Source: Lolium rigidum
Taxonomy: Eukaryota > Streptophyta > Magnoliopsida > Poales > Poaceae
Reading direction: 5' to 3'
DNA: 64,000 nucleotides
Assembly: GCF_022539505.1 (NCBI RefSeq)
Contig: NW_025899904.1
Span: 186,001-250,000, forward strand
The notes below the pieces were generated by a model, which made no database searches, was not told the DNA's origin, and saw nothing but the letters and a program-made list of their open reading frames with translations. Shown piece by piece: positions 8,688-59,636 of this stretch. The translations under genes were made by a program, and so were the position numbers. Every line of letters starts with the position of its first letter. Position 1 is the first letter of the stretch.

Positions 8688-9638
8688 TTAGGTGCCCCGA
8701 GCCGAATCCTTCAAGTAATTGAAGATATCGGCTCTCCGATCATCCTGTTCCGAGGAACCGCACCCGAACTTCGACCCGTCCGGTATGTCCTTGTATCCCG
8801 ACGCCATCCGTGCGAGATCATTGGCGTCGGTATTCTGAGACCTTGGGACCCAATTGAAATTGATGTACCGAAAATGTGTCATCAGCTCACGACATTCCAT
8901 CCAATATGGAAAGAGTGACTCACTCTCGCACTTGTATTCGTCCGTGAGCTGGGAGATCACCAAGTTCGAGTCTCCAAAAAGCTCAACCGCCTCTGCCCCG
9001 GCTTCCAAAAGCAACTCCATTCCCTTGCGCACTGCCTCATACTCAGCGACATTGTTGGTGCAAGGGGTAGATAGCCTGATGGCGAAAGAATATGTTGCCC
9101 CCCGAGGCGACACGAGCAGGATGCCGATGCCACAACCATCATCACAAGCCGATCCATCGAAGAACATAGCCCATGCACGTACAGATAGTGCTGCTATATT
9201 AGTATTAATCCGTTCAGCTATAAGATCGGCCAACGCTTGTCCCTTGACTGCTTTCGCAGGCTGATACCGAAGATCGAACTCCGACAACGCAAACATCCAC
9301 TTACCAAGTCGGCCTTTCAAAACAGGAGCCGACAGCATGTGCTTGACAACGTCTGACTTGCATATGACGATGATCTCTGCCGTCAAAAGGATATGATGAA
9401 GCTTGGTGCAGGTGAAGAACAGGCAGAGGCATAGCTTCTCGACCTCAGGATACCTTGTCTCTGCGTCCAACATCCTTCTGCTGAGGTAGAAAACGACCTT
9501 TTCAACACCCTCATAGAGTTGCACCACCACCGAACGGCCTGTCTTGTTGGGTGGAACTAGCACAGGCGGCGTTGTTAGATACCGCTTAATCTCGTCAAAC
9601 GCCTGCTGCTGTTCTCCCATCCCAGTGGAACTCGTCAT
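8688..9638 (-). pseudogene. Gypsy RNase H plus second (archaeal-type) RNase H
   Basis: An open 316-codon stretch on the - strand. The first part is the RT-linked RNase H (FDEIKRYLTTPPVLVPP, then VVFYLSRRMLDAETRYPEVEK, then LGKWMFALSEFDLRYQP). A second RNase H domain follows, with MFFDGSACDDGCGIG carrying the first Asp, NNVAEYEAVRKGMELL the Glu, FGDSNLVISQL the next Asp, and RSQNTDANDLARMA the last. Two RNase H modules in series are diagnostic of the Tat branch of Gypsy. The N-terminal junction with the RT fragment is frameshifted near 9600-9640. Confidence 0.88.
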
Positions 9639-10422
9639 CAGATTTAATCTTCACCAACGCCATGAACGGCTCAATTCGTCCTGACAGGTTAGAGATGAAT
9701 CGTCGGACGAAGTTGATCTTGCCGATAAGACGTTGGAGCTCCTTTTTCTCTACAGGTACGATACTGGAGATCCATTCAGCATACCTGCATGGCCTGATGA
9801 ACCCGGCGGCCAACATCTTCTCGATCTCTTTCTTGACCTCTTCCAGAATTTCGGCCTTCATCTGACGTGCCCGTTGTTGGAATGGCCGAAATCCTTTCTT
9901 AAGAGGGAGCCGATGCTCAATGATGCTCCTGTCTAACCCAGGCATCTCTGTGTAATCCCATGCAAAGCAATCTGGGTACTCTTTTAATAGAGCTATCATC
10001 TGGCTCCTGAGATGTGGATCTAACTTTTTGCTGATAAATGTTGGTCGTGGCTTATCCCCGGGACCAATGTCGACTTCTTCTAGCTCATCAGCCGATGTAA
10101 ACCCATACCCTAGCTTTCCGTCACCTGTGAGATCGACACTGAATACAGGGAAAACGTATGGTAAGGATAATATGGGCCGATTGCTGGAATCGGCCTTCAT
10201 TTTGATTGTAACCAGGATTTTTGGGAAGCGCCGGAGCCGATCGCGTGGAACGGCTTCCTCTTTGTCCTTGTTATGAGAGCAGCTGCCCTCGTCTTTGTCC
10301 TTACCAGGGTGGTGCCCAGGTCCTACCATGTTGATGTTGAACGAGAAACCTGGCTGGCACCTCCCAGGGTAAGTGCACTCCACCATGTTAACGGCGGGGA
10401 AAGGGTGTGTGTCGACTTTCAT
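9595..10422 (-). pseudogene. Protease/RT N-terminal region with the RT catalytic core deleted
   Basis: The frame reads through a linker and the RT N-terminus (FAWDYTEMPGLDRSIIEHRL, then AEILEEVKKEIEKMLAAGFI, then YAEWISSIVPVEKK). It then passes directly to ELQRLIGKINFVRRFISNLS, a motif that normally lies more than 100 residues downstream, in the connection region. The whole palm, including the Tyr-x-Asp-Asp motif, is missing, and the junction near 9740-9750 keeps the frame. This in-frame deletion makes the element unable to copy itself. Whether it arose before or after the insertion cannot be told from one copy. Confidence 0.85.
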
Positions 10423-16999: not shown

Positions 17000-17889
17000 A
17001 CCGACGCAGCGCATTGCCGGAAATGAAGCTGCCCCCGGGCGTGGGCCGTGTAGGGATGCGACATTTGAGGGCAAAGACCAGACGCGGCAACGCCGGGCAC
17101 TAGCTACCACCCCACTACTGTCAGCAGTAGCAGCAGAGCAACACTTCATCCATCCAAGTCCAAATCAATCATGCGCACGAGACGACGCAGGCAGGGAGGA
17201 CAGGCGGCAGTCCCAAACGGGAGAAGCGAGACGGCCCAAATTAAGCAAGCAAGCAAAGCCAGCCTCCTACTGTCGCAGCCCGCCCGCCCGCCCCCACTCC
17301 GCACCATCATCTCATCTCGCCTTCCATCTTTCCTGGACGGACCAGTACTTGACCTAGCATTTGTTCCGCGCCGCCGTCGTCACAACAACAACAAAAAAAA
17401 AAGCACAAAAGGAAATGAAATGCCTACGAAAAAGGAGAAAAAAAAAAAGGCCGTGCTCCGTTCCTGTGGCTCGAGCAATAGATACAGGCTGCGAGGAATT
17501 CGGGCATCAGATTTTGGAGATTCGGACGTACGATCGGCGGACACGTCGACGGGATCCGGGCCCACAGCAGGCCATCCTGTGGCGGGGCGAGCCCGGGGCC
17601 CCACGGGTTGGGCCTGGGCCAATGGCAAGTCGACAACGGATATGCTCCAGACCAGCCCGGTATCGACATACCGCGATCTGCCCCAGATCCCTTAAAAACC
17701 TCCCTCCCCCCTTGCCGGAACGGAACCCTCGTTGCTCCTCTCCCCCCACACACACACCCACCGGACGCGCGCACGCACGCCATGACGCCGACCCCGCGGC
17801 TCGACCTGCACCCCCGGGAGTAGCCGTCGCGGTCGCCGGCTGGCTGGATTAGGGTTTGGGCCGGTCTTCGAGGGAGGGAAGGAGGCGAG
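17000..17889 (+). promoter_or_regulatory. VRN1: VRN1 promoter and 5' leader
   Basis: GC-rich, low in repeats, directly upstream of the MADS-box start codon. It contains the VRN-box-like TTAAAAACC-TCCCTCCCCCC at 17692-17711, a CA-repeat at 17748-17760, and (AG/AAAAG)-rich tracts at 17390-17450. No transposon was recognised between 17000 and 17889, so the core promoter looks intact. Transcription start not determined. Confidence 0.75.
17692..17711 (+). promoter_or_regulatory. VRN-box-like element
   Basis: TTAAAAACCTCCCTCCCCCC, 198 bp before the ATG. The cereal VRN-box, TTAAAAACCCCTCCCC from memory, occupies the same place in wheat VRN1 and is disrupted in several spring alleles. Here the A5 core is kept and the C-run is interrupted by a T and extended. 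Confidence 0.7.
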
Positions 17890-20800
17890 ATGGGGCGCGG
17901 CAAGGTGCAGCTCAAGCGGATCGAGAACAAGATCAACCGCCAGGTCACCTTCTCCAAGCGCCGCTCGGGCCTGCTCAAGAAGGCGCACGAGATCTCCGTG
18001 CTCTGCGACGCCGAGGTCGGGCTCATCATCTTCTCCACCAAGGGAAAGCTCTACGAGTTCGCAACTGACGCATGGTTAGTACCCTACACCCTACGGCCAC
18101 AGCGACCGCTGATTAATTTCTCTCCGTTCCGCCTTCGATTTCATGCCGCTCTACGAGTTGGGCGCTTGTTCGCTCCATTTCTGCGCTGTTCGATCCATTA
18201 AGTTTGCCGCGCGCTCGGTGTTCATTCCTGTGTCGAATTCTTCCTCGGCTGCTCGTTTTGCTACCCTAGAATCCACCGGCGGCGGGGTAAGCGTCCCGCC
18301 GCTGCGATTCCTGCCTTGGACCGTACGGCCAGAGACGGGCTGCTGGGCTATTTTATGCTCCGCTATCGCCGGGGACCTTGTTCATCCGCTTCATTTTGGG
18401 GAATTTTTCCGTCCCAGACCCGCCAGCTGGCAACCCAAGTGGAAGGGGTGCCATAGTAAATATCTTGCTACTTTACACGTCCCCTTTTTTTTCTGGTAGC
18501 TCAGGATATTTATTTTTACCTCTCACTCGAGTAGGCTGATAGTATTTGTGTACCAAGCTTACCCTCCTCATCTCAGTTGGCATCTTATCTTATTTGATGC
18601 ACGTCGTTGCCTGTCTGATCAGTTACTGTGAGCTTAATTTGCTGCTTAGAACCTCATCAACTTGCTGAGTTCTTTTCAAGCTGACCCCCCATTTTGTTGT
18701 TTGATTGGCTCCATCTCATCGGAATTAATTAATTGTCTGAAGCTCCCAAATGCATCGTTTGCCTGGAACTCATGAAACTCGTCCCTAGTGTCAAATTAAT
18801 TGTTCATATGTTTTCTGTAGCCCGTTCCCTTCTATCTGCTTCCTCAGTTTAATTACTTGTGAGATAGAAATCATATACTGATTGCCTGCTAACAAAAGAA
18901 ATTGGAGCAAATAACACTTATCCAGCCGTTCTCCCTGCTCACATAACTCCATCTTAGCTTCCGAAGGATCGCTTCTTTCTGGTAAATAAACAATGATGTT
19001 TGTAATCTTGTCGAGAAAACGAAATTGTTATTTGTTTCATGTGTATTAACAAGGACGTGTACTATGTTGATTACTGAACTTGAACTACTAGGTTCTTTGC
19101 TGTAGTAGTATGACTGAACAAGTGGCGCCGAAGAAAGAGTAAGCAAAGTTGATTGGTTTACCTTCTATTCGGTTGCTCTACCGAATGACTATGCATGCAG
19201 GCAGTAGAACAGTTATTGGTTAGATTAATGCTTGCATGCATGTATCAAGCCGGGCAAGTGATGCAAATTACTTCTGGGTCGCTGAGGTCCATAAGAATAA
19301 AAGTCACTTAAATTAAGCTACAAAATGGATGTAGTCATATTATAAGCCTAGGAGCAGTGCTGAGCTTCGGCATCTGAGAACATTCTAATTGGTAGCCGTG
19401 CATATGTTGGATTGCCTGCTTTATTTTCTTCTCTCCAATGTTTGCTCCCGTGGCATGCTGGCATCCTAATTGTTACATGCTTGTCTAGATCCTATGAAAC
19501 CGCAGATGCATTGTGATGATATTCCATGGTCTAGTTTGTTAGCCAGCCTCTTGTAGTTACGGAACCTCAGATTTTACAGCTTTCTGGACTTCTAATACAA
19601 ATATGCATACAAACCATCATGATATATAGCCTGGCCACAGCCGACGGCTCAAGCACAAAACCAGCACTGATCAAGAAGACAGCCTATGCATACACTAAAA
19701 GGCAGATAATATTGCACACTTCACTGGTTAGCTGATCCTGGTTTTGGATAACTGGGACCAAATTGTTATTCACTCTATCCACTCATTTTAACATCAGCCG
19801 ATTAGTTAATCACATCTTCCAAAGGTCTTAGACAGTGTAAGACTTAACCTTCTGTAGTAAATACTAGGCCCAGCCTACCAAAAGGTCTTATAATTTAGAA
19901 TAAAAGGTAGTACCAATTAGACTATTAGGGATTCTGTTTTGGATCTGTACTGTTACACGCTGTGTCGCTCTAGTGCTTTCCCAGGTCAAGGGAAACAGAT
20001 ATCCTCTACACCTTTTGTATCTCCCAACAATATTAATACCTCCGTCCCATGAAAACATGTCTTAACTTTATCTAAATTTGAGGGTATCTAGATGCCACAT
20101 AGTGTCTAGATACATCCAAATTTGGTTGAAGCTAAGGCAAGTTTCAAAAGTTGAAAGAGGTACTTTTAGTACATCCAAGGTATTGTCTAAAAATATCAAC
20201 TCTGAGGTAGTCAGAGGTTCCATTTTTGCTCCTGCGACATCTTTAGCCCCACAGACAACGCCCAGACGACCGGCTTGGACCGCTAAGATCTTATGTTTAT
20301 CCACCATGCATGTAGGTTATGATTTTGCGTTCAAGAAAAATAAACTAATATTTTGAAAATTAAAATTAAACTCCAATAAAGTCTATGTCGATCTACTGAT
20401 AGAATCGCTGGAACCGAAAACTAGTTGCTTTTTTTGCATTATGTTTCCCCAAAATGATAAAAGCTTCTTCATACATGTATTGTAAGTGAAATCTTAAGAT
20501 ATACTCCATCCGTTCCATTCTATAATGCCTATAGTTTTTTGGCATGAAAATTAGCGCAAGAGTATTCTTTACATAAGATCCATTGGCTTAACGATTTGAG
20601 ATCAGAGTAAAATGAGGAAAAATCGATAACTTCCTAAATTAACATAACAAATTCCACAAATCTCTCTAGTTGACTCTCCATATATGTGCAGCCAGGTTCT
20701 ACTATTAAGGAAAGAAAAACAATGCTTCCTAAATCTAAGTAATCGTTGGGGTCATGCATTAGGAATCTCAATTAATTGTTTCCCTTTTGTATGGATTTTT

Positions 20801-23800
20801 TTCATGCATGTCGTGTGGGAGCTGACCGGTAGAGGGGGTAATTGAAAAAAAGCCAAGCTACAACCTTATATTCTGAAACAAATGCCAAAAATCTATAGAC
20901 ATTATAAAAAGGAACGGAGGGAGTATCGTAAATAGATTTATCATAGTTAATAACTGATGAGAGTTATTGATGTTACAATTTCGATGTTTCGCATTACTGA
21001 CATGCTTATTGTTTGTTCTGATGTCATGTGTTGTAGGATCCTTCGCCTAAGCCAAACAGTGTAGCGACCTCATGTAAAGCTTTAGTATTAGCATTCCTGT
21101 ATACCATATTCTAAGAATTTAAATATTAAATAAAAATATATTATTCTTTTGAATCTTGATTTCATAATTTTAATTTGTTAAGGCAAAAAATAAAATTTGA
21201 AAATTTGAATTTCGAAAAAAATGTGATTTTCTAGAAAAATGTTGAGGCCATAATTCTCTGTATTTGAGTCTAGAATTTTGAATTAAAAAATCAAATCAGA
21301 AAAAGCTTTTCAATAAAACTTAAAAAAGGTTTGAAATATTATATCCACATATACTAAATCAATATGATTAGATCAAATCACGAAAAAATGTTTAGTTACT
21401 GTATTTATTTGGTGTTTTGAATGTTGATATTTTTCTGTTGACATGACCAAACTATACAAATTTTGACGTAGGACAAGGCATACAATCTGAGAGAAGTTTC
21501 TTTTGAAGTGGATAGCCCAAGGCCAAATATGGCCTGCAGTACAAACCAAACGCGTTCCACTATATTTTGTTTTCAATAAAAGATATTTATACTAAAGCAA
21601 GGACGTTTATATAACCATTATCGGTTTTAGCCACGCACTGGCCCTCCGCAGATTCAACCAAAGTATTACTCCCTAAAATAGTAATAATTCACGTGACAAA
21701 TGAACACAGGCAGAATTAAGCGAAATGCAGTTTTAGTACGTTCATTTATATTCCTGGAGTAGATAAATGCAACTGTTTTCACGCAGTTGACCAAACTGTA
21801 ACACGGTACGTTCAGTACTGACAAAATCAACTTGGTGACCTTTCCCCACTGTACATCGTTCCGTGTGTACATGCTTGATTATTTTAGGACTTGTTTATTT
21901 ATTTGGTTGAGTTTCCAACCGTAGAAGTTCTTATGGACGTAGGCATGCATCTCAATATCGCATGCGTGCTTTTCTTTCCACACCATTCGTGCTTTGTAGG
22001 ACAATCTTCGATCTGACCACTTTTTGATTCTGAACGTGAGTCAGTTAGTGTCAGGCGTCATTCACAATGTATTAACAGCTTTGGTAATCATTCAAAACGG
22101 ATCCATGTCATACAATCTATCTGGTTGCACTTCACATCGTCTTTGGATACAGTATATGTGTGCAAAACTATGTGGAACTGCGATTTGTCAACTCCAGAAT
22201 GATGTCAATTAATACGAAACAAAATCATAGATTAAAATATAACATCGGTGCAAATCATGCCGGAAATGTACATGGCTATATGGCTTTATGAGAAAGTTGT
22301 AGTTTGAGTTGTCATAGATTAAAATATAACATCGGTGCAAATCATGCCGGAAATGTACATGGCTATATGGCTTTATGAGAAAGTTGTAGTTTGAGTTGAA
22401 ACCCAACTTGCTCACTGAAATCGGACTATTGACCTGCTAATCCCGACCTTGTTCCTGTTTAGCACATCGTCAAAAGTGTGATTCTGATCCAGAACACATT
22501 TTTTTCTTAGTATTGTAAATGTAGTCCTTGATCCACATATCAAAATTCATCTTCCTCCTCCACCCTCACTTCCCCTATCCGCTTTCAACCCTAGGCGCGG
22601 TTGTGCTGTTGGTTGCGCGTGGCAGATAGGCATATACAGGGTGACTCGTACAGGTTCAAGGTGAGGATTGTCCTAGATTTGCAAATACTACGATCCCAAG
22701 TTTAGATATTGGCAAGTTGGTGCTCGACTTGTACCATTTCAAGATCAAGATTTTAAACAGGCTAGCCTCCTTTATTGCGAGGAAGAACGTGTCTCGTGTT
22801 TTATTGTAAAAACACAAATGGGTCATATTGCCGCACCAACCAATGGATTTTTTTTTTATTTCACATGTGAGTTGCTACCATGCCCGGTTGTACAAAATCC
22901 GGGTAAAAACATTCTGTTGATAAGGGTGCATTATCTTTACACAAAATACATAAGAGAATTTAATAAAATGAGTATGTGTTGTTCACAAACAAACGAATAA
23001 AGAATAATAGGAAGACTTGTGCCTTATGTTAAATAAGAAAAATAGTACTCCCTCCATCCCAAAATATAAGGCATCTAAGGATTAGTTAAAAGTCAATGTT
23101 TTTAAAGTTTGACCAAGTTTATACACAAAAATATAAATATTTACAATACTAAATCATTATCAATAGATTCACCCTAAAGTATATTTTCTTAATATGTCAA
23201 TTTGATATTGTAGATGTAAATATTTTTTTCTAAATATTTGATCAAAGTTTGTAAGGTTTGACTTTTGACCAATCCTTAGACGCCTTACATTTTGGGACGG
23301 AGGGAGTAGTACATACTTAGTGTCACATTATAAAGAGTAATAATAGCTTCAATTCTATTCTAAAAGTGTAGATAGAAATAGGAGTCGAGTTGGTTGGGTT
23401 GTACATCCACTATCTGAACTTATTGAGCTCGAATCCCTTATTTTTCACAATACTTGTATCACATGAATGTAGATATGTGCAAGGTTCAAAATGGCGCTAG
23501 GCGCTAAGCGTTCTGCCACCGGATAGCTCCTAGGGAGCCTAGACGTGCATTCTATACGACAACATCAGTTGGGAAAATGAAATGGTCAATTTGTCGCCGA
23601 TGAGGAGCATTCTTGTCTAAGGAAGTTAAATACTTGCTGACTAACTAGCCGTCACGAACCATGAGTACATGTATGCATCATATATATGTGGACTATAAAT
23701 GTGCCAACACTATTCATTTTATTATCTAGATATGTTTTGATTTTTTTTCTATCTTTTGTCTTACTCGGTCCAATCGATCATGTATATGTTATGTTTATTC

Positions 23801-26800
23801 TGATGAACTTGCAACTGCACACTCCCATTGAAGTATCTTTATTGTTCACTTGTACCTTTAACATTATTTGTTCACCACATTTTATTGTGTTACATAAAAG
23901 GTTCGTTTCTTATCTATTTTCTATGATAACCATTCAATTATTTATGATATTTTTTTACATGTCAAGTATCTCTTGTTCTACGAATCAATCATGCATACAA
24001 TATTTTCAAAAGGCAAATTTTGTTTACCCTCTCACAAGTACAAGTAACATGATTATCCAATTAATCCATGAGCTGGTTTTTCCTAAATCAGCCTTGTCTT
24101 TTCATAATACCATACCACTTACCACAAAAGCTCATGTCGTGTTGGTTGCATGCATGTGTTTTCTCTTGTTTCGGTTGGGACATGCCTAGGGGCACTTGCT
24201 CGTGTTTGGTTGCTTGCATTGCATGAGGGAGCAGTTGTGACACCCGTTTTTGGTTGCTTGCACATGAGAAATTTGGCTTCACCCTATGTTTATACCTCTT
24301 CTCAAGAGTGTTGATCTTTACATAGTACCATCAAATTAACATGAAAGAAACATGAGACTAAGTCAAATTACAACCCTACGATGCGATGGAAGTATTGACT
24401 TAACAGTTATAGTCTAACTACTTAACAAGTGGAAATACTTGGTCTATTAATTGGAAAATCACAATGACACGAACAATGTTTAACTGCCATAGTAAGATCC
24501 TTGTGGATCCTCGGTTTGCCAACATTGTCTCGGCACACACTATCCTTTTTATTGTCCAAGCAACATTTATCGGTTGGTACCACATCATGACCTTGCTTAG
24601 TGGAGTCAACCGCCACATCCTCCTCCTGTGGCACTCTCATCAATAGCAAACCCATGTATCCAGTTTTGAAAAATGCAACATGCAGACAAGCTTAACTTGG
24701 GTGGCCAAAGGGTGGAAATACTTTTGATCTAGGCTCTTCCATCTATTCTTCAAAGCCGCAAATGCCTTCTCAACTTTCAATCTAAGGCTTGAGTGCCGAC
24801 ACCTAAAGATTTTTGTAGCATTATGAGGATAGTTCTGATGGTACCTAGTGCTTCTGAACAGCCAAGCCGACATGCATATCCATTATCTTCCAAGTGGAAC
24901 ATTAACTATGAAGTAAATAGGAACAAACCCTAAACCCGTGGCTCACTGCAAGGTATGAAGGTCTACAATATTATCTCGAGGGGCACTTAACACATGTAGT
25001 CTAAAGAAACTTTCATTTAGAATGTTTACATTACGACTGTGATCCTTCCCAACCACCTAAGACATGAGAACTTGAGAAAAAAATCAATAATAGGTACTCC
25101 CTTCTCTGTTCACTATTGTAAGACCGTTTAGACATTTCAAAGTGGACTAGTTTTAGATCAAAATGAGTGAACCTGCACGCTAAAATTAGACTAGGTACGG
25201 ACCAAAATGAGTGAATCTACAAAAGTTTAAAGATCTTACATTAGTAAGCGGAGAGAGTTGCACATTCTATGTTCCCCTAAATGCTACAAGCATTGATTGG
25301 TGTTGAAGTGTAATTAGTGGATTGCACTAACCCTTTTCATCGGTTTAGACTTTTGGTTGCGTTGGTTTGTGCATGGAGATTGATATGCTATCATAGCCTA
25401 AGATCTTGAGTTCGACTCTTGGCTTTTGCAACTTATCCTAAAAAAATTGTCGCCGCCCTTGTGTTCACATATAGGCATGTTGAGTCATACCTCTGAATCA
25501 CGGGTCCATTTATAAGGCATCTTTAGCCTACCTCTGTGTTTACACATGTTGACCTGTCTTCCCCCTCACACGTGAGGAGGGGAGTGTATATGTGGATTGT
25601 AGTAACCCTTTCCATCAGTCCACATGCAAGTCCTCTTGAATCATACCTCCGAGTCACCGGTCCACCTACAAGGCCTCTTGATCCTACCTGTGCGTTTACA
25701 GATGTTGAATTATCTTCCTCGTCACACGTGAGGGGGGAACGAAGTGTATACGTGGATTGTACTAGTCCTATCCATTGGTTCGGATTTTTGGTTGCGTTCG
25801 CTAGTGAATGAAGCTTGACATGGTATCTCAGCATAAGGTCTCGAGCTCGAGCTCAAGTCCTGGCGTGCGCACTTGATCCTAAAATTGATGTTGCCCTACG
25901 GCATTCACATGCATGCCTCTTGAGTCATAACTCTGAGTCCGCGGTCCATGTACAAGGCCTCTTGAGCCAATCTCTGAGACTCTACATGTGTTGACCCCAA
26001 ATGCAAATGGGGTGTTGTAGTGTATAGGTGGATTGTACTTGTCATTTCCATCACTTTGAAATTTTGGTTGCGTTGGCTAGTGCATGAAGCTTGACAATTG
26101 ACACGCTGGGGTGTACCATTGACAACATGAAAAAACGGTTATGCTGATGACACGGTTATATGAGAAACTTGAGAGTGCTTAGCGTATTCCATATCTTGAA
26201 GTATGGATACCATCTTAGAGTCTCTCTTACCTTCTTTGGTGTGTCACCAGTTGGTGGCTTGATCACCTCACCTTTAAGCTCGCCACATGCATACAAGACT
26301 TTCTTGAAATACCGATGGACTCTATTAATGGATCTCCGAAGTTGTTGTGAATCAGTGTAAACCTCTAGTTTATCACCAACAACTTGAAGGAATATTGCCA
26401 CTTGCTAGCACAAAGTTGTGTGGATGCTATCATGCAGTAAACATATCCCGAAATGTTTTGCAAAGATGGAAAGGGAGGCTCTTCTTATATGAGCATTTGT
26501 ATGGCATCTACATCTCTACAATTGTAGATGCTGACAAGCCACCCTATCCACATCTTGCCATGCATATCTTATTAGGAGAGAAGGGCCATCATTCCCCCTC
26601 TTGCAGACCAAGAGTAGCCACTCATGCATTGTAGCTACGGAGGGTTGAGGCCTATATAGCAGGACCCATTTGTCGTCCTATTGTAGGTCACCAGAGTATG
26701 GGGCATGTACACTATCTTTCCAGTGAAGTCAACCTAACTAACTTGAAGGTGGGGGTATAGGGATTTTACCGCCGCCGCAAAAGTGGAGGAATGACGTGGT

Positions 26801-29800
26801 TGGAAACGAAGGAGAGGTGAACTGGTACTTAGTGGTGATGGAGGTGCGCAGCTGCTGGAGACAAACAAGAGACTAGCCGGTGGTAGGGAGAAGGATCAGT
26901 GCTGCACTACCTCAAGAGAACTTGAGGATTTTTCGTAGTCGACATCTCTCCATCGGAGCTCCCACCTATCCTCATGTTTCTCCTCGAGCAAGCTTTGCTA
27001 CCTAGAATCTAGTGAATAAAGGCATTCCTTGTAGGTATGGCTGGGGGTGCTTTAATCCGGTGGCGCCATCCTAAACCCTAAATCAAGCATTTAGAGGGAC
27101 AAATTTAGCTTCTCTCGGCCTTGGTTGCCCCTCATGCAGGAAACCAATCACGCCCCTAGCAATCTGGAGTGGTGTGACATATGGCTCGATGGATGTGAGA
27201 TGAAAGGAGTAATCTTGTCTAGTAAGATTGGGAAACATGCCTAAATTTAAGATTGAAGTCATAAATCGAGGTTTGAAGACACGAGGCCACCTAAATTTAA
27301 GAGTGATGTGACATACGGAGTTTTTTCCCCTAAGTTATATCGTGTATGCTCCTTTATGTAGTACATTCCTTTTTCGGTAAAGGGAATATATTGATATCAC
27401 AAAGATACTAAATACACCTAGCCTATGCAACAACGTGATGCCCTAGTGGCATTACGGATGCACACAACTACAAAAGAAGAAGAAATATTCCTTGAAGCAG
27501 AATTATTAACACCACCAAGACAACACTAGAAGTCCAGCTCCTCCAAAAGTGACACACATCTAAGAAGGAAACAGTGCACAAGCGCAAAAGATCTTAGATT
27601 TTCACCCTGGAACAAAACAATACCTTCAACAAAATCATTGCCAGGCACAACCAATAAAGGTCATACCTTGAATTTTCACCCTGAGAGGTAAGACCTTGAA
27701 CATATGCCCCCACTTGCAATGCCAATGCTCCAAGTCAGAAATCACCAAGTCAATTCCTCGTCTTCACAAAGACCGAAATCACCATAGTTAAGTCTTTACA
27801 TCCACCTTAGTGGCATTTCGCTGGCTTCACCATGGAATGAGAAAGCGTGCTCCATAATGGTCATACCCAGCTTCGCAGTGCTCCCTCGGAAACCAAACGG
27901 CTAGAGAAAACATAGATGTGCACGACCGAATTTCACCCGATCCAGCAATTTCCAGGCATGAATCACCCAAAGGAGTTCGATAGGGACTCGCAACCGGCAG
28001 ATCTTCATCTTGGCATGAGTTGGAATAGTAGGAAAACCACCATTATTTGGTTGGGCCAGCAGCCCCCTCACAGCCGGCCGGCTTCCGGCGAACAGATGGA
28101 ACGGGCCAACCCGTTCTGGCCCAGATCAAACCAAAGGTTGGCCCCAGATCGAACACGCGAGGGAGGTTCCGAGAGGCAGGAACGCATGCTCGAGGAGCGC
28201 CACCGCCCGCCGCCGCCAGAGCACCACCACAAGCAGCCCAACTCCGTCTCCTTCGTGCCTCCCTGCCGTGCGCCAGCAAGCACCACCCAAACAACGAGCA
28301 CCGCCACCCCGTCGCTGCCTGGTCTCCACCTGCACCGCCCCGAAGTCGAACCCCCCCATGCGAAGGGAGCTTGACGGGTCATGCCGCCCTTCGACAGCCA
28401 GGTGTGGTCGCCACCGCCTGCGACGGCAGCAGCCGGTGGGGTGGGATCGGATCTTGTGGGCTTGGGAGGTGTGGGGTCCTTCGGAACCGCCCTCGCGTGA
28501 GCGGCCCGGGAGGAGATGATAGAATTCAGTGATAAAAACATATCTATAAAAATGGGGAGAACTTCACTTCCCGACCTCTGCACCAACTAGGGATGCACAC
28601 AACCATTAAGCATGAGTACTAGGATTTTTAATCTTGGTGCAGATTAAAGCTTAGTCCTCAAGATAAATTGCATGAGCACCAGATCCAGCCTAACTATGAA
28701 CCTAAATTCGTGGATTTGAACTCATGTGTTGGGTTCTGTAGTACATTCTGGCTGATTGTAGTAGTTAGTATCTGCACTTTGGAGTGTGACCAATGTCACC
28801 ACGCTTTTTTGATGTTCAGCCATCCAATGCGTCAGATGCAGTTTTACATGGAACATTTAATCTCTTCGGCATTAGAACTTCTCATTTGAATCTACCACCA
28901 GCAATATATTGTCTAACTACTCAGCATGACGGTTGAAACCTACGCTTACTCATCGGAGCATGGTCTCACCCAAGATGTGATTTTTTTACTCTCTTTTCAT
29001 AGTCATTTTCATCTGCTAAGGGTGTTGTCATATTGTTCATTATTCTTTAGCATTCTTGGTATATTATTCCATCCTCATTTAGGATGGGAGGGCGAGGTCC
29101 AAGCCACAATATTGTGCATACTGGACATATATTTATGCTATATACACAGTAATATCATGAAAATGTCCTATGAGTTGGTGGGCTAGGGCCCACTTTGCCC
29201 CAACTAAGCTTTAGCACTAGTTTGGAGGTTGTGGCCACACAAAAAACTACCGAGTTAGGAACGAGGTAATATGTAATAGGATAAGAGTAGAATTGATTGA
29301 AGAAAAGCTAGTTCAACACTGACTAAGGTGATTTGGGCATATCCGAGGCCTCAAGAAGCAGTAGTAGAATCCTAAAGGGTAGGAAAAATATCATGAGGGA
29401 CACATGTGACCAAAGTTGACATGGGGGGATGCGGTAAAAAGGGACTTGAAGGATTGGAATGTACCTTAAGATTTTGCTCCTAATAGAACTGCATGGAAAT
29501 CACCAATCCATGTGCCGGCATCTTAGTATATTGCTTACTCGTTTCTCTTGTTCTCTTGGTTTCATATCTAGCCTACCCCAGCTAGCTTGGAACAAAGGCT
29601 TTGATGTGGATGTTGCTTATCGTCGGCTATACCTGGGCATTTGTCAGGCTGGGTGGAAAAAAGTTCACCGCAGAAAATCTAGGCCCAGTCCTGGCTAGGC
29701 AGAGGAAAATTCTGCCGGGCCTCTTCACTACTATGCAGAAAATGCAGGCTCGGCCCTGGCCCGATCACTGGACCAGGCTTGGTCCGGGATTTTCTGGCCG

Positions 29801-32303
29801 ACCAGGCCAGGCTGCCCTTGCCCAGCTATATCGTGGGCCTTTATAGCTTTTGTTTAATTAACCTATGATTATTTTCATTCTCACAATCAGTTAAGAATGC
29901 AAACAGTTTGATGAGTATTTGTTATCAGTGTTTGAAGATAATTTGCATATGTCAATATGAAACAACAGATTATCGTAGAAATCAACGATGGTTCAAATGT
30001 AGCATATATCTTTTATTGAGATATTCATGCCATGCACTGGATACCCTAATAATATTGATGTGTACATCCAGTGACTTAACATTTGTTGCTCTTATGCAGT
30101 ATGGACAAAATTCTTGAGCGGTATGAGCGCTACTCCTATGCAGAAAAAGTGCTCATTTCAACCGAATCTGAAATTCAGGTAACATAAAAACAAACAGTGT
30201 GTTTTTATTTGGCTATGAACTGTGAGTAAAATTCTACTGTGATATTTTGAACTTTATTAATTAGACCACTATGTATTTTTAAATTCTTTTTATGAGCTAT
30301 CAAGTTACTTAATTCAATTGTAGCTACTGACTCCTGGTTCATTTTGTTTCTGTCTGCTATTCAGTTTTTCTTTGGTGAATGCTTAGGCATCTAACTTTAT
30401 GCTTTACTAAATTATCAGTAGTAGATTGAAATGCATGGGATGAGCGGCAATTCTAAATTAGCTAATTGAGTTTCCAAAAGAGTAGAAAGAAAATTTGACA
30501 GACATATAATAGGGTGAATAAAAGTGTGTGCATTTATGAGAATCAGAACTTTTTCCTAGATTTATCGCTGATCTTAACACAAATCATTGATTCTCCAGAC
30601 CTTTGGCTGTATTATTCTACCATCGGCCATTAAGGATCATGCGACACTAGTTGTCATCTCTGGTTTCTTCCTACAGCTTGTCTGAGGCTATAGTCCAGCA
30701 AAACAAAGAGATCTAGTAAGGTTCAACTAGGAGCTCCAGAACCTAACTGCTAGTTTTTGGCCAATTTTCAATCACTTCCAATGGTATTTGATATAAACCA
30801 AGTTGCAGCTCAAACTGATAGGTCCAACCAGTTTTATCTTATTTCTGACAGACAAATTCAGCATGTATGTATGACGAAGAATATTGAAGAATGTTATTTC
30901 TGTAACAAATAAAAGAGTGTACATATATACAATGTCGTGTTTAATATTATACCTCCTTTGAAGCCCTTTGGTATTACGAGATGTTATTTTTACACCTAAT
31001 GTAAGACTTCTTGCACTGAACTAATTAATTTGAAGTTACGAAATTCAAGTACAAAGCACAGACCAATCCTTTGTATTCGCTCCCTGCTTGATCCTTGTTC
31101 TTAGGTCTCTTAAGAGTCTAAGTTCAGGTCTGACTTAATGAACTTGATTTATCATTCATGTCCTTGTACCTTCTTATTTCACTCAAACTTAGTAATGGAA
31201 ACCTCATTTGCTTTTGTAGGGAAACTGGTGCCATGAATATAGGAAACTGAAGGCGAAGGTTGAGACAATTCAGAGATGTCAAAAGTAATTTGTAGTTATT
31301 TTGGTTTTGGTTGGCAGTATGTTGTATACTTTGTTAAGATAAACGTGTCTGAACTTCTACACCCTGCACCTGTAGGCATCTAATGGGAGAGGATCTTGAA
31401 TCATTGAATCTCAAGGAGTTGCAGCAACTAGAGCAGCAGCTGGAAAGTTCACTGAAACATATTAGATCCAGAAAGGTAGATACATCAATACAGCAACAGA
31501 ATACATGGAAAAAACAAGAAATTACACTTGCAGAAAAAGTTCAGAAAAGTACACTTCACTCAGATTCTAGACTGAGATATACACGTTATGTTGATGCGTT
31601 TTATTACGTTCAAGCGCTGATAACTAAAAATTCTGTATGTGTGCAGAGCCAGCTTATGCACGAATCCATATCTGAGCTTCAAAAGAAGGTGATTTTTTTT
31701 TGTCAACCTTGCATCCTTGAACCGGTAGCAGAGCTGGCAAACTTGTCATGAGAATATTTAGCAAACTTGCATCCTTACATCCATTTATGAGATGTATGCA
31801 AGTATTCAGTGCTTTACACAAAACCTCATTTTTTATGCTGCAGGAGAGGTCACTGCAGGAGGAGAATAAAATTCTCCAGAAGGAAGTAAGCTACAGTTGC
31901 TTTTATGGTTCAACCGATCTATACTGTTTCATCAAACCAAGTTAAATTGACAGAAACCCTGGTCCCTTCCTGCAGCTCATAGAGAAGCAGAAGGCCCACA
32001 CGCAGCAAGGGCAGTGGGAGCAAACTCAGCCCCAAACCAGCTCTTCCTCCTCCTCCTTTATGATGGGGGAAGCTACCCCAGCAACAAATCGCAGGTGATG
32101 TACATTCACGGTCCTTCCCTATCCAGGCCATTTTACTTCCATTCTTTTGACTCTTAAGTAACAAAATAATACACTATTGTTATGTTGGGTTGTGCAGTAA
32201 TCCCCCAGCAGCGGCCAGCGACAGAGCAGAGGATGCGACGGGGCAGCCTCCGGCTCGCCCGGGGCTTCCACCATGGATGGTGAGTCACATCAACAATGGC
32301 TGA
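17890..32303 (+). CDS. VRN1: VRN1 (AP1/FUL-clade MIKC MADS-box transcription factor), eight coding exons
   Basis: Nuclear transcription factor that promotes the vegetative-to-reproductive transition; in temperate cereals it is induced by vernalization and represses flowering repressors. Coding exons: 17890-18074, 30100-30178, 31220-31284, 31376-31475, 31647-31688, 31844-31885, 31976-32094, 32198-32303 (738 nt, 245 residues). All introns are GT...AG. Exon lengths 185/79/65/100/42/42 match my memory of the grass VRN1 pattern. MADS domain residues 1-60 ([20 protein letters not shown]), I region to about 90, K domain about 91-171 with heptad Leu/Gln ([19 protein letters not shown]), then a C-terminal region rich in Gln/Ser ending [12 protein letters not shown], the FUL-type motif. 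[20 protein letters not shown] places it with VRN1/OsMADS14 rather than FUL2/OsMADS15. The start is the only ATG preceding the MADS domain. No disabling changes are seen. Residue 61 is Ala where I recall Ser in related proteins. Confidence 0.96.
20037..20130. mobile_element. One-ended Stowaway/mariner-type MITE fragment
   Basis: Starts at a TA with CCTCCGTCCCATGAAAACATG, the usual end of a grass mariner-type MITE, and runs through a short palindromic stretch (TCTAGATGCC... TGTCTAGATAC). No matching right end was found, so it is truncated or decayed. Confidence 0.55.
20504..20923. mobile_element. Stowaway-like MITE with ~42-bp terminal inverted repeats
   Basis: The left end CTCCATCCGTTCCATTCTAT and the reverse complement of the right end CTCCCTCCGTTCCTTTTTAT continue to match over about 42 bp. 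TA dinucleotides flank both sides (20502-20503 and 20924-20925). 420 bp is long for the class, so the interior may hold extra sequence. Confidence 0.8.
22225..22398. repeat. 87-bp perfect tandem duplication in VRN1 intron 1
   Basis: Copy 1 at 22225-22311 and copy 2 at 22312-22398 (starting TCATAGATTAAAATATAACA, ending TTTGAGTTG) appear identical with no spacer. Identity implies a recent duplication, or an assembly artefact. Both copies contain short A/T tracts and the palindromic-looking CATGGCTATATGGC. Confidence 0.9.
23048..23306. mobile_element. Stowaway MITE
   Basis: 259 bp between TA dinucleotides (23046-23047, 23307-23308). Left end CTCCCTCCATCCCAAAATAT, right end reverse complement CTCCCTCCGTCCCAAAATGT, followed on both sides by complementary AAGGCATCTAAGGATT... 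and ...AATCCTTAGACGCCTTA. AT-rich, with potential to fold into one long hairpin. Confidence 0.92.
24430..24873 (-). pseudogene. Harbinger transposase, C-terminal DDE fragment
   Basis: The minus strand reads [20 protein letters not shown], then [20 protein letters not shown], then [16 protein letters not shown]. This resembles the final part of the PIF/Harbinger DDE nuclease, where a conserved Glu follows the RHSSLR-type segment (here VEKAF). The canonical Cys-Cys-x-Leu-His-Asn end is altered and followed by stops. The N-terminal part lies upstream in coding direction at 26401-26156, separated by later insertions. Confidence 0.75.
25097..25257. mobile_element. Degenerate Stowaway-like MITE
   Basis: Left end TACTCCCTTCTCTGTTCACTA, right end ATTAGTAAGCGGAGAGAG, with inner inverted repeats around AAAATGAGTGAA(C/T)CT. 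The right TA is mutated. It sits inside the Harbinger remnant, so it is younger than that element. Confidence 0.7.
25301..26096 (+). mobile_element. TRIM-like array: four short LTR copies alternating with three internal segments
   Basis: Related ~85-bp LTR-like units: A 25301-25385, B about 25582-25620 (truncated), C about 25736-25820, D 26013-26096. Shared core GTGGATTG(C/T)ACT...TTTTGGTTGCGTT...GTGAATGAAGCTTGACA. Unit C is followed by TGGTATCTCAGC and unit A by TGCTATCATAGC, both variants of the initiator-Met tRNA site TGGTATCAGAGC. Internal segments (25386-25581, 25621-25735, 25821-26012) share TTGAGTCATACCTCTGAGTC and end in CACACGTGAGG(A/G)GGGGA-type polypurine tracts. Outer flanks ATTGG (25296-25300) and ATTGA (26097-26101) look like a target duplication with one change. 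The element has no protein and depends on Copia enzymes from elsewhere. Confidence 0.75.
26156..26401 (-). pseudogene. Harbinger transposase, N-terminal fragment
   Basis: The minus frame reads [20 protein letters not shown], then [20 protein letters not shown], then [16 protein letters not shown]. This is the region just ahead of the first catalytic Asp in PIF/Harbinger transposases (Arg-Ser-x-x-Thr-Ile...Phe, then Tyr-Pro-Tyr-Phe-Lys). The expected Asp-Gly-Thr-His segment appears decayed at about 26120-26150, where the - strand reads GTTGTCAATGGTACACC. Confidence 0.75.
27361..28540 (-). mobile_element. Probable non-LTR retrotransposon piece, minus strand
   Basis: The left end CCTTTTTCGGTAAAGGGAATATATTGATATC is, as its reverse complement, a typical 3' terminus of a grass LINE. 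It is followed by sequence shifting from AT-rich to very GC-rich at 28060-28510. Open frames inside the GC-rich part exist in several frames and are not recognisable. Boundaries and class are tentative. Confidence 0.4.
29235..29615 (+). pseudogene. LINE reverse-transcriptase C-terminal fragment
   Basis: Conceptual + strand translation in shifting frames gives LRWFGHI-like residues (29320-29345), then a [12 protein letters not shown] stretch (29440-29465), then [15 protein letters not shown] after a Pro-rich spacer. This is the usual order at the 3' end of grass RIX LINEs (LRWFGH, VKRDLK.WN, then a GTKALMLL-like tail). It is heavily decayed and 5'-truncated. Confidence 0.65.
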
Positions 32304-33122: not shown

Positions 33123-36100
33123 CTACAGCTTGAGCTTCTCCTTAAAGCGCGAAATAAACTTGAACGTCTCCTCTGCTTTCACCTGTTGATAAATATCCGT
33201 TCGTGATACTCTGTCCGGATGGAATTTCAAAAGGGCTCGCTTATAAGCACCTTTAACCTGAAGGAGTAATAAGCATAATATCAGAAATGAACATCAGACA
33301 TAAGAATTGGCTATTGATTAATTCTTATTTACATACATATGGTCATTGCACAACAACATAACTTTCAGTGCTTACATTCAAAACTGCACATAGATTTGGA
33401 TCACAACATTTGCTTATGAAATTCAGGTAGTAATCAGAATGTGCTATGGTACTTTTGTTTCTGTGGAGCAAAATAAAAGATTTGGATATGTAAACGGGCT
33501 ATAGCTAGAGCTCACATGTTCCACAAAATGCAAACAGCAAATGCTAAAGGGAAGAACAGTTTGTGTGTATAGGAAGCGGCTATTCTGAACACGAGCTCAG
33601 ATGAGCTCGTTTTATGGACCGCACAGCTGGTACAGGAGATACTGTTGTTGTGTCAGATACGGGATTAGAAAAAGTGTGTACTCGAGGTGCTGTTCGTATG
33701 TACGTTTCCTTCGTCCAAGCGGCAGCAGCGCCGCCGGTGGCCAAGCGGCAGCCACGGGGGACCCCATGGTTGGACGTTGCAGTAGCAGCACCATGGACCA
33801 AGCAGCAGCCACGGAGCCGGCGACCAAGTGGCAGTAGCAGAGGACGGACGCCATGGTTACAGCTCCGCTGACCAAGCGGCAGTATCAGAGGATGTCATGG
33901 TTACGGCAGCTGCGTCCGCGACCAGCCTACTGCAGCAGAAGATGCTATGGCTACAGCAGCGGCGTCCGCGCCCAGCCGGCTACAGCTGAGGACGACATGG
34001 TTAGGGCGGCGGCACCGGCGACAAACCTGCTGCAGCTGAGGGTGGTTACCGCAGCGGCCGTCGCTAGGAAAGGCAGAGAAGTAGTGTCCTCGTTGCAAGT
34101 GAGTCTTCAGACTGACTAAAATAATAGGCATACGATAGAGATACGGTGGTGTACCAAAAAATGAGTGGTTCAGAAAACGAGCTCATATGAGCCCGAGATC
34201 AAATGAGCATTTCCGTAAGATCTCTTTTAACAGTACATAAATAACACAGGTAGTGTGCAAACAGAGGCTGGGAGATGTACACTGGATTAAATAGTTAATC
34301 TGGCCATTTCGATTTTGTAACAGAAAAATATGGAAGTACTCGAAAGGCTTTAAGTTAGACAAATGAACATATTTATTCTGATATTTAGAAGCTACAATTG
34401 CTCAAAATATGTAGTCTTTAAGCTATTGCATAGGGACATTAGTATCTGTACTTTCTAATATAGAAATAAAAAGAACCAATACAGCAATTAGAATATTAGG
34501 AAAGTAACAGCAAACAATCTTCTGCCAAGAGGAAGTTTAGGAAAGGTTGTGTGTATCAGTAGATATACAACATACCTCGCCCCCTTCAACAGGGATGCCT
34601 AATGCACGCAAAATCGAAGACACATCTCTGCATGTCCTTTCCAAATTTTCGAGCTCCAATCTTACTGCCCCTCGACACTGCTCCTTCAGCTGTGTATCTT
34701 CTTCAGTCTTTTCAACAAAGAAAAGGGAATAGTAAGTATGATGAAATTTCACTTAAAGAAAATAATCAAGATAATGATATAGAAACTAAGGATATCAGAG
34801 CAAGAATCAATTCATTGCATAGTATGTAGAAAAAAGACCTTTCGTTGTGTTTCACGAACTTCTTCAACTCGTTGCTTTTGTCTCTTCTCCATGTCAAGCT
34901 GTCGTAAAGCTTCAGCCTTTTTTCTCTTTCTCAACCGCTTTGCCTCCTTCGCCTCCTCAGCCTGGGATTTTTTTTTCGAACAAAAGGACCATCATGAATT
35001 AATTGTTAGTGTGAGCTTTTGCATTTTGATAATATAATTAAGAGAACAAAAGCAGGGATGGAAAAGACACAAAAGAAAAGCGTGCAGCTCCTTAAAACTA
35101 ACATACTTGTACAACACTCAGGTTTAACTCTAAAGAGAATTCCTTATTTTACACTACTCCCAAATATGATTCCTTATTTGGCACTGGAATTTTTTTCCTT
35201 CCTTATTTGAAACTTGTGTAAATTTTGATGCCTCGTGTGACACTATAGTTCATTTTGACAACTACTCGTATTTGGTTATAATTAATCCATATATGCTAAT
35301 TTATAACAAGTTATATACATAAACTGCAAACGGCATGGACATCAGATACCCGCCTCCTGTGTTTTCTTGCACGCTGGGATTAACAGGATAAGGCTCTGCT
35401 TGGTTCAGCGTATTTTAGTCAAAGCGGGTGTAAGAATTCCGGGCCGTAACTGTTTCCATACAAGCGGTTGGTTCTCCTTATTTTAGCAGGTCCCTTTTTT
35501 TCCACCCGAGTAGGCGACATTACTGCATGGAAGATGCGTCAAATCTACGGCCCACCCACACTCCGCTTAATATCCAGCTGTAATCGTGGACACAAGAAAA
35601 CCAGGCGATCAAGATTTCCTGATGAGATATTAATACGGCATTCCAAGCATGCCCTAAGGAGGATTATATGGCGTTTACGAATCGGGACACGTGGGTCCCG
35701 TTGGAATAGCCAACCCCCCCTCTCGACCAATCTTTGGGCTCTCCACCTGGCACCTTGGTTTGTCTCTTTGCTTAGATTTTTTCTCCCCGATCGATCCCTC
35801 AAGAATCAATTTCCTTCCTGGCTACGTCCAGCTGGGCTTGCTCATCTTAGCAGGCCCGCTGCCTCTACATGGCTTCCAACTAGGCTGGCGGGGTTGTCGC
35901 TTCTAGCAACTTAAATTTTCTTTTCTTGGACAGCTAGCGACTAACACAAGGGTACTTTGGTCTACCTGATAAAAAAATGACAAAACAATCTAACGGAACA
36001 GACGGTAGTTTCATATAAGGCATCAAAACTTACACCAGGCGACAAACAGGGAAGGAAAAAAATTCCACTGCGAAATAAGGAATCATATTTGGAAGTATTG

Positions 36101-37347
36101 TCAAATAAGGAATTCTCTATTAACTCTATTGCTATTGTCGTACAGTTCTAGTTAAAGACAAATTCAAAGCGGGAAAACTAGTATACCTGTATTGCTAACT
36201 GACGCTGCCTGGATGCCCACTCCTCCTCTTGTGCCCTTTTATACTCATCAGATTCCTTGTGCTTTTCACGAGCACCAATTAAACCATCCTGAAAGTCCGG
36301 ACCATCTGGGAGAACAGCCAGTCGCCCCAACTTTTCAGGATCATCCATCCTTTCAGGAGTGCTGACAAACATAGGAGAGTCATCCTTCCAATCTGCCGAG
36401 CATGCAGGGAAAACCCTGTTTTTGGGGATGAAGCTAAAGCCCGTGCACCCTTGAGGATTCAGGGTGTCATCTGGGTGAGGAGGAGGACTTGGTTGTGGGG
36501 CTTTTTCAGGAACAGGGCCCTTGTCGGAGTGATCTGCTTCATCATTACAAGCCATATCAGGATCCAAACTGCCAGCGGGATTGCGACCTTCAGTTTGTAT
36601 TCCGCTGGAATCAACACCCACCGGAGATTCGTTGGCTGCATTTGGCGCTGAAGAAGGGCTAGCGCCATACTGCGGACCACTGGTACCAATTGGCCCAGCC
36701 GGGTTGAACACATACTGCTCCCAGAAGCTGTCATCTAGAGGAGACCCTGAAGCAAAGAGGTTATCTGGATTTTCGCCGTGGTGTGTACTTGACTCGGCAC
36801 TTGACGCGGAAGTGCTAGCCCTGCCACCTTTGCGCTGCTGCGGGGGAGGGTGATGCATCATTCTTCTAGAAGCAGCCCTCTCCCACGGCCCACGAGCCGC
36901 CACCGAGGGCAGAATCTCACAATCCGAGCTGTCGTCACTGTCCGAGTCCGAATCTGATCCTTCGGACAGATCACTCTGGTCGCTGTCGGACACATAATCC
37001 AGCCCATATCTGTTTCTGGGAGCAGCATGGCCAGGGGGAGTTGCTGTGGCCGGAGACCCGCCAGCAGCCGCGGTGCTGGGTCCTGCCCTATCGCCGCCAC
37101 CGCCCCCCTCGTCGTCCTCATCATCATCATCATCATCTAGGTTGATCACATTGCTGCTAGAGCTGTTCCCCTTCTTGCTATTGCACGCCGCCGCGGCACG
37201 GGCCCTCTCCGCGGGGTCGTTGATGATGAAAACCTCCGAGTCATCCGCGCCGTCATCCGCGTCGTCCTCGTCTAGGACCACCAACGGCGGCTGCTCGGGC
37301 TTCATCCTGGGCGACTTCCCCGCCGGCCGCATCCGGCCCCACGACAT
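33123..37347 (-). CDS. Nuclear-type protein with C-terminal J-domain, four coding exons
   Basis: Exons in coding order: 37347-36187, 34961-34839, 34707-34576, 33257-33123; GT/AG introns, all phase 0; 516 residues. The ATG at 37347 (MSWGRMRPAGKSPRM) is the first in frame. Residues about 20-150 are strongly acidic (VFIINDPAER, six-Asp run, SDSDSDSDDSSDCEI). The middle part is Pro/Ser-rich and contains SPLDDSFWEQYVFNPAGPIG and FSFIPKNRVFPACSADW. Residues about 365-430 are charged coiled coil with a nuclear-signal-like KRLRKRKK. The last ~80 residues form the J-domain end: CRGAVRLELENLERTCRDVS, GAYKRALLKFHPDRVSRTDI, EETFKFISRFKEKLKL. His-Pro-Asp is intact, so it could stimulate an Hsp70. Domain at the C-terminus marks a class C J-protein. 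Part of exon 1 is duplicated at 49290-49571. The substrate is unknown. Confidence 0.88.
33592..34190. mobile_element. GC-rich insertion bounded by short inverted repeats in intron 3 of the J-domain gene
   Basis: GAGCTCAGATGAGCTCGTTTTAT (33594-33616) and, inverted, GGGCTCATATGAGCTCGTTTTCT (near 34170-34192) bound about 600 bp. The terminal repeat is itself nearly palindromic. The interior is GC-rich and includes the 50-bp minisatellite. No target duplication could be settled, so the class (Mutator-like or hAT-like) is open. Confidence 0.5.
33790..34050. repeat. 50-bp degenerate minisatellite, about five units
   Basis: Units start at about 33790, 33840, 33888, 33938, 33988 and 34038, each opening GA(A/G)GA(C/T)G(..)CATGGTTA and ending CTGCAGC(A/T). 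Spacing is 48-50 bp. GC-rich against an AT-rich intron background. Because 50 is not a multiple of three, the open frames across it rotate and are not coding. Confidence 0.8.
35133..36119. mobile_element. Mutator-like (MULE) non-autonomous element in intron 1 of the J-domain gene
   Basis: 987 bp with long terminal inverted repeats of roughly 115 bp. Left end AAGAGAATTCCTTATTTTAC, right end reverse complement TAGAGAATTCCTTATTTGAC; both continue into CCAAATATGATTCCTTATTT and then AATTTTTTTCCTTCC. Flanked by a perfect 9-bp target duplication TTAACTCTA (35124-35132, 36120-36128), the hallmark length for Mutator-like elements. No transposase. The interior (35340-35990) carries GC-richer sequence with a frame of 148 codons that I do not recognise; a captured gene fragment is possible. 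Confidence 0.88.
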
Positions 37348-46257: not shown

Positions 46258-46422
46258 TTTAGCAGTAGTAAATAAAGCAAACTAAATAAAGTAAACGCAA
46301 GTAACCAATTTTTTGTGTTTTTAATATGGAGAACAAGACAATAAATAAAGTAAAGCAAAGCAAGACAAAAACAAAGTAAAGAGATTGGATGTGGGAGACT
46401 CCCCTTGCAGCGTGTCTTGATC

Positions 46423-49289: not shown

Positions 49290-49571
49290 GGGGCTTTTTC
49301 AGGAACATGGCCTTGTGGAAATGCATTGCTTCGTCATTACAAGCCATATCAGGATCCAAACTGCCAGCGGGGTTGTGACCTTCAGTTTGTATTCCGTCGG
49401 AATCAACGTCCATCAGAGATTTGTGGGCTGCATTTGGCGTCGAAGAAAGGCTACCGCCATACTGCAAACCACTCGTACCAATTGGCCCAGCCGGGTTGAA
49501 CGCATAATGCTCCCAGAAGTTGTCATCTAGAGGAGACCCTGAAGCAAAGAGGTTATCTAGATTTTCACCAT
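49290..49571 (-). pseudogene. Captured exon-1 fragment of the J-domain gene
   Basis: 282 bp aligned with 36497-36780 of the J-domain gene exon 1, about 30 differences by eye (near 89 percent identity), same strand. The frame is open: it reads HGENLDNLFASGSPLDDNFW, then NPAGPIGTSGLQYGGSLSST, then GHNPAGSLDPDMACNDEA, against HGENPDNLFASGSPLDDSFW in the gene. Many differences are C to T or G to A, as expected from decay of methylated CG. It abuts the chimeric gag-like ORF at 49572 and the Copia remnant at 49285. It is an internal exon piece without introns, so DNA- or RNA-level capture cannot be told apart. Confidence 0.9.
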
Positions 49572-59110: not shown

Positions 59111-59636
59111 TACCAAGTCTCATGAGCAACTTCAAATTCAATTAACTAAAAATGATATGCCTAGTTCTTCTATGTCTTCTTGTGATCATGTAAATGTTAT
59201 TAAGGATAACACTAGGTTGAAGGCCAAGTTTCCTAAGTCCTTTCCTCCCCATGGTGAGATTTTTTTGATGATCTCTTGAGATATCAAAGATCAAACAATG
59301 GTAAGGTAGGGATTGGATATAATCCAAACACAAGTAAAAAAAAGAAGTCCAAGCCCGTACAAGCAAAGGAGAAAAATGTTGTGGGTGGTGATGTCACTAG
59401 GGACAATACCACCCATAATAACTTTGCGGGAAATTATAACCCTCATTATGTGCTATTCTATGATTACTATGGTGATGTTTATGCTAAATATGTTGGTCCA
59501 TATGATGGTTATGTTGCTTGGTCTATTTGGGTTCCTAAGACCCTTGTTGCTAACAAAAGAGTACCCATTGCGAAATGGGGACCTAAAACAAAGACTTGAT
59601 ATCATGTAGGACTATGCCACCAGAGGGTCGAAATGG

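What the first reader, a model, noticed from the sequence alone, without database searches (positions are those of the whole stretch)
17890..32303. Complete VRN1 gene with all eight coding exons resolved
Exon borders, phases and a 245-residue product can be read directly. The C-terminal stretch (residues about 188-245, ending LPPWMVSHINNG) identifies the VRN1/OsMADS14 side of the AP1/FUL clade and points to Lolium or Festuca. This makes the locus a candidate for vernalization or heading-date variation.
Basis: partly seen in the sequence, partly recalled or inferred. Interest (0 to 1): 0.75.

Follow-up and report, generated by a model that had tools for sequence, protein, structure and literature searches.

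The report
Ryegrass VRN1 vernalization gene, intact
This stretch is a complete, ordinary copy of VRN1, the gene that lets temperate grasses flower after winter cold, in a ryegrass (most likely annual ryegrass, Lolium rigidum).

Summary
The finding is correct and ordinary. Eight coding exons splice at GT-AG borders into one open frame of 245 residues. The protein is 98% identical to Lolium temulentum MADS1 and 96% to L. perenne VRN1. It groups with Lolium VRN1 and not with FUL2 or FUL3. A J-domain gene lies convergently downstream; relatives of it share a contig length with the VRN1 relative in 10 of 18 grass VRN1 rows entered, against 0 of 25 FUL2 rows. The host assembly (2,438,458,167 bases, 1,764 contigs) fits published Lolium rigidum (2.44 Gb, 1,764 scaffolds). 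VRN1 was found once there, on the 258-kb contig C126. Added here: a 13-codon upstream ORF, a near-match to the wheat VRN box, no CC(A/T)6GG box in 2 kb, and a 12,025-bp first intron with several small insertions. Inferred, not shown: the intron is of the long kind, unlike the 8.6-kb-shorter allele of the vernalization-free L. perenne Veyo (passage). Low interest.

The parts
17890..18074 (+). exon 1, MADS domain, start codon
   Evidence: tblastn 100%
18075..30099 (+). intron 1, 12,025 bp, the regulatory intron of VRN1 genes
30100..30178 (+). exon 2
31220..31284 (+). exon 3, K-box
31376..31475 (+). exon 4, K-box
31647..31688 (+). exon 5
31844..31885 (+). exon 6
31976..32094 (+). exon 7, C-terminal domain
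32198..32303 (+). exon 8, ends LPPWMVSHINNG and stop
17782..17823 (+). upstream ORF of 13 codons (MTPTPRLDLHPRE), 66 bases before the VRN1 start codon
   Evidence: same length and proline-rich like the barley VRN1 uORF MAPPPRLRPRLSE (PMC3248443, section 8)
17692..17709 (+). VRN-box-like sequence TTAAAAACCTCCCTCCCC (wheat 16-mer with a 2-base insertion)
   Evidence: score 27 of 32, best of 30 shuffles 24; wheat sequence from PMC9760837 (passage)
20501..20926 (.). MITE-like insertion in intron 1, 45-nt inverted ends, 89% complementary; dispersed high-copy element
   Evidence: 39 further genomic copies at 92-95%; 40 of 4473 candidates were scored
23043..23311 (.). MITE-like insertion in intron 1, 112-nt inverted arms, 79% complementary
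22225..22398 (+). perfect tandem duplication of 87 bp in intron 1
27366..28512 (.). old dispersed repeat in intron 1 (genomic relatives mostly 69-76% identical)
   Evidence: 40 of 8042 candidates were scored

Best explanation
An intact VRN1 (AP1/FUL-clade MIKC MADS-box) gene of Lolium, most likely L. rigidum. Shown here: structure, relatedness, position, single copy in the assembly. Taken from published work on wheat, barley and perennial ryegrass: the promoter is induced by long cold, intron 1 keeps transcription low before winter, and the protein then promotes the change of the shoot tip to flowering and lowers VRN2. Inferred: the small uORF may tune translation; the 12-kb intron is the undeleted kind, so this allele would be cold-responsive and not constitutively active.
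For: One open 245-aa product; 98%/96% identity to L. temulentum MADS1 and L. perenne VRN1; closest to Lolium VRN1 rows in both trees, FUL2 and FUL3 each separate at 99-100 support; shared contig lengths with the J-domain gene, 10 of 18 VRN1 rows entered against 0 of 25 FUL2 rows; uORF and VRN-box-like site; a second MADS-box exon 164 kb upstream on the same contig; intron 1 of 12,025 bp against about 10 kb in temperate cereals and about 5 kb in rice (PMC4148898, passages).
Against: The whole VRN1 group is not firmly a single clade: 0% of bootstrap trees with the two maize rows in, 47% without them, so rows outside Pooideae do not separate cleanly from FUL2. Eight of the 18 VRN1 rows show no shared contig length with a listed J-domain hit (both lists cut at 120). 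No CC(A/T)6GG in 2 kb upstream; the looser C(A/T)8G occurs once. Wheat RIP3 primers find no region above shuffles. No RNA evidence.
Confidence: 0.97

Rival explanations
1. It is the paralogue FUL2 or FUL3 and not VRN1.
For: FUL2 shares about 70% identity and the same domains.
Against: A FUL2-like locus of this same genome lies on C7 (pieces of 73-86% at C7:176.80 Mb); FUL2 and FUL3 groups are separate at 99-100 support and the window is in neither.
Confidence: 0.01
2. It is VRN1 but an altered, spring-type allele whose intron 1 or promoter change makes it active without cold, fitting an annual weed.
For: Several insertions and an 87-bp tandem duplication in intron 1; VRN-box-like site differs from wheat by 2 bases; no CC(A/T)6GG box.
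Against: The intron is 12 kb long, so no obvious large deletion; in wheat CArG loss leaves vernalization response intact (PMC9760837, passage citing Pidal 2009); differences from wheat may be normal for Lolium, and no Lolium allele sequence was available to compare.
Confidence: 0.15
3. The source species is another Lolium or Festuca and not L. rigidum.
Against: The count of 1,764 sequences matches L. rigidum exactly and the size to its rounding; L. multiflorum is reported as 297 scaffolds, then 7 chromosomes with 2.55 Gb (PMC12051776, passage). P0055 is one sequence found on 3 contigs, so its name need not belong to the longest contig.
Confidence: 0.06

Closest known systems
LpVRN1 of perennial ryegrass (G9JVK2; Andersen 2006, Asp 2011 as cited in PMC4167334)
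   Same: 96% identical protein, same length of 245 aa, same clade
   Different: 10 residues differ; the published 8.6-kb intron-1 difference between Falster and Veyo could not be aligned here
Lolium temulentum MADS1 (Q9ZTT7)
   Same: 98% identical protein, same length
   Different: 6 residues differ: positions 61, 183, 185, 232, 233, 242
Wheat and barley VRN1 (wheat rows P0009 and P0019, barley P0024)
   Same: 85-87% identity over the whole protein, 13-codon uORF in barley, long intron 1
   Different: VRN box has a 2-base insertion against wheat; RIP3 not found; no CC(A/T)6GG in 2 kb
OsMADS14 of rice
   Same: 85% identity, same side of the clade
   Different: rice intron 1 is about 5 kb (PMC4148898, passage)

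Membership tests
VRN1 (grass AP1/FUL1 clade) | MIKC structure: MADS and K-box domains | tested here: met
VRN1 (grass AP1/FUL1 clade) | groups with VRN1 orthologues, apart from FUL2 and FUL3 | tested here: met
   window set with Lolium VRN1 at 97/96, 89/93; five-row set 100/96 and 100/95. Monophyly of all VRN1 rows not shown (0% and 47% of bootstrap trees)
VRN1 (grass AP1/FUL1 clade) | conserved neighbourhood | tested here: met
   J-domain gene next door; second MADS-box gene 164 kb upstream, likened to AGLG1/OsMADS34 from recall
VRN1 (grass AP1/FUL1 clade) | eight coding exons with a large first intron | tested here: met
   that eight exons is the rule for VRN1 is recalled
VRN1 (grass AP1/FUL1 clade) | upstream ORF in the 5' leader | tested here: met
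   one search compared
VRN1 (grass AP1/FUL1 clade) | VRN box in the promoter | tested here: inconclusive
   near-match with a 2-base insertion
VRN1 (grass AP1/FUL1 clade) | GRP2-binding RIP3 site in intron 1 (wheat) | tested here: inconclusive
   four wheat RIP3 primers, both strands, none above the best of 30 shuffles; one equalled it, at 20964-20985; primers are a weak probe
VRN1 (grass AP1/FUL1 clade) | induction by prolonged cold | not testable with these tools
   no expression data

The most novel reading that the evidence does not exclude
The sequenced allele carries a Lolium-specific intron-1 or promoter change (small transposons, 87-bp duplication, altered VRN box) that weakens the cold requirement and so helped make annual, weedy ryegrass.
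Probability: 0.07. Interest if true: 0.5.

Novelty: new member of a known kind. Interest (0 to 1): 0.12.

Why it matters
It gives a clean gene model and an intron-1 map for VRN1 in a ryegrass, useful as a reference for comparing alleles between perennial and annual ryegrasses. It adds no new principle. A practical point: in this assembly the DNA search found the gene only on the 258-kb contig C126, so scans of the seven long sequences alone would miss it.

Tried and rejected
FUL2/FUL3 identity: rejected by tree and by the separate locus on C7. A panicoid (maize-like) source, my own first guess from memory of maize proteins: rejected. L. multiflorum as source, suggested by the P0055 contig length: rejected by assembly statistics. 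My checkpoint note still says L. multiflorum; it was written before that check and is superseded. RIP3 by wheat primers: nothing above shuffles. Asp et al. 2011, the key paper on the L. perenne alleles: not held, so the 8.6-kb region could not be placed on this intron; what I say of it comes from a passage of PMC4167334, and that it is a deletion in Veyo is recalled. Pfam of intron-1 reading frames: of 54 open frames of 60 aa or more overlapping intron 1, 8 were scanned; one weak DDE match. tRNA and Rfam scans of the window: nothing. Solved structures: only MADS and K-box relatives such as MEF2 and SEPALLATA3, nothing that separates paralogues. A passage search of the L. multiflorum 'Rabiosa' paper gave no VRN1 text.

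Full report
What is there. The eight exons listed under parts splice into 738 nt with one open frame of 245 residues; all seven introns are GT-AG, and of four combinations of nearby donors one was open. The protein has a MADS domain and a K-box. The best database hit is L. temulentum MADS1 (98%, six differences), then L. perenne VRN1 (96%, ten differences).

Which paralogue. Two maximum-likelihood trees were made from rows that I picked out of the 120-row lists: 42 rows (18 VRN1, 10 FUL2, 10 FUL3, 3 outgroup, the window), and 39 rows after I dropped the two maize VRN1 rows (long branch) and one barley FUL3 row. In both the window lies with the Lolium VRN1 rows, in the same five-row set, and FUL2 and FUL3 are each one group at 99-100 support. 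The VRN1 rows as a whole form one group in 0% of bootstrap trees of the first and 47% of the second, so the deep split between VRN1 and FUL2 outside Pooideae is not resolved; that does not touch the window's place. A FUL2-like locus of this genome is elsewhere, on C7.

Neighbourhood. A four-exon gene on the minus strand (37347-33123) codes for a 516-aa protein with a weak C-terminal DnaJ match, below Pfam's cut-off; several grass relatives are named J-domain proteins. Contig lengths in the tables, copied by hand, agree between a VRN1 row and a J-domain row in 10 of 18 VRN1 rows and 0 of 25 FUL2 rows. Limits: both tables are cut at 120 rows; I entered only some rows, 25 of the J-domain gene; I left the length of one further FUL2 row (P0048) out; I sorted rows into VRN1 and FUL2 by name and identity, not all by tree; equal length is taken to mean the same contig. 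Consecutive locus tags in Eleusine (3BG0260780 and 3BG0260790) and in the sedge Rhynchospora (LUZ61_009677 and 009676) agree. A further MADS-box exon lies on the same contig, 164 kb upstream; its translation resembles the AGLG1/OsMADS34 type as I recall it, untested.

Genome and species. The window is C126:186001-250000 of a genome of 2,438,458,167 bases in 1,764 contigs; C126 is 258,076 bases long. The L. rigidum paper reports 2.44 Gb, 1,764 scaffolds, of which 1,757 unplaced, and 70.4% duplicated BUSCOs (PMC9664059: passages and one section); L. multiflorum figures differ (PMC12051776, passages). That C126 is one of the unplaced contigs follows from its length. DNA of 30000-32600 matches once at 100%; the only other matches are three pieces of 73-86% on C7.

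Regulatory features. A 13-codon uORF ends 66 bases before the start codon, like that reported for barley VRN1 and other grasses (PMC3248443, section 8). A VRN-box-like site differs from the wheat 16-mer by a two-base insertion (wheat sequence in PMC9760837). There is no CC(A/T)6GG in the 2 kb upstream; the looser C(A/T)8G occurs once, 1,532 bases upstream; in wheat the CArG box is not needed for the vernalization response (passage in PMC9760837). Four wheat RIP3 primers gave nothing above shuffles, one equalling the best shuffle at 20964-20985.

Intron 1. It is 12,025 bp. It holds a dispersed MITE (20501-20926), a second MITE-like element (23043-23311), a perfect 87-bp tandem duplication (22225-22398), a diverged repeat block (25299-26096), a weak trace of a DDE transposase, just under Pfam's cut-off (24640-24882, minus strand), and an old dispersed repeat (27366-28512). 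In perennial ryegrass an 8.6-kb difference in this intron separates the vernalization-requiring Falster (longer) from Veyo, which needs no cold (PMC4167334, passage). A 12-kb intron is compatible with the longer kind, but this is inference.

Mechanism. Cold induction, low activity kept by intron 1 and promotion of flowering are reported for VRN1 in cereals, and cold induction also for perennial ryegrass (passages of PMC4148898, PMC4167334, PMC7973463); none was tested here.

Novelty. The orthologue in sister species is well known. One search for L. rigidum together with VRN1, vernalization and flowering time, three of four terms asked (listing of 12 of 716 papers), showed no paper on this allele; that is a weak statement of absence.

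Noticed in passing
window 36497-36780 and 49290-49572: A 284-bp piece of the first exon of the J-domain gene recurs 12.8 kb away at 89% identity, same orientation, in the retrotransposon-rich flank: a partial gene duplication or a captured fragment.
   Followed up: partly
window 4999-6159/12240-13399, 39949-41557/46451-48054, 50264-50648/56402-56785: Three pairs of long direct repeats at 97-99.5% identity, like young LTR retrotransposons flanking the two genes; frames with RNase H (8688-9650), gag (45031-46281) and, outside these pairs, integrase (59610-60578) matches lie in the flanks. A fourth pair, 61115-61663/61942-62491, is 98% identical.
   Followed up: partly
[quoted passage not shown]
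   Followed up: no
window 33888-34041: Tandem array of a 50-bp unit, 3.1 copies, in the last intron of the J-domain gene.
   Followed up: no
G000, MADS-box hits: Many of the 150 MADS-box hits come in pairs of equal score, often on the same chromosome, in keeping with the 70% duplicated BUSCOs reported for the assembly; the VRN1 exon has no partner of equal score (150 of 226 candidates scored).
   Followed up: partly
P0006 (L. perenne MADS box protein 1, C7DYC8): A database protein differs from VRN1 around the end of exon 6 in a way that looks like reading past the exon 6 donor; a splice variant or a cloning artefact.
   Followed up: no
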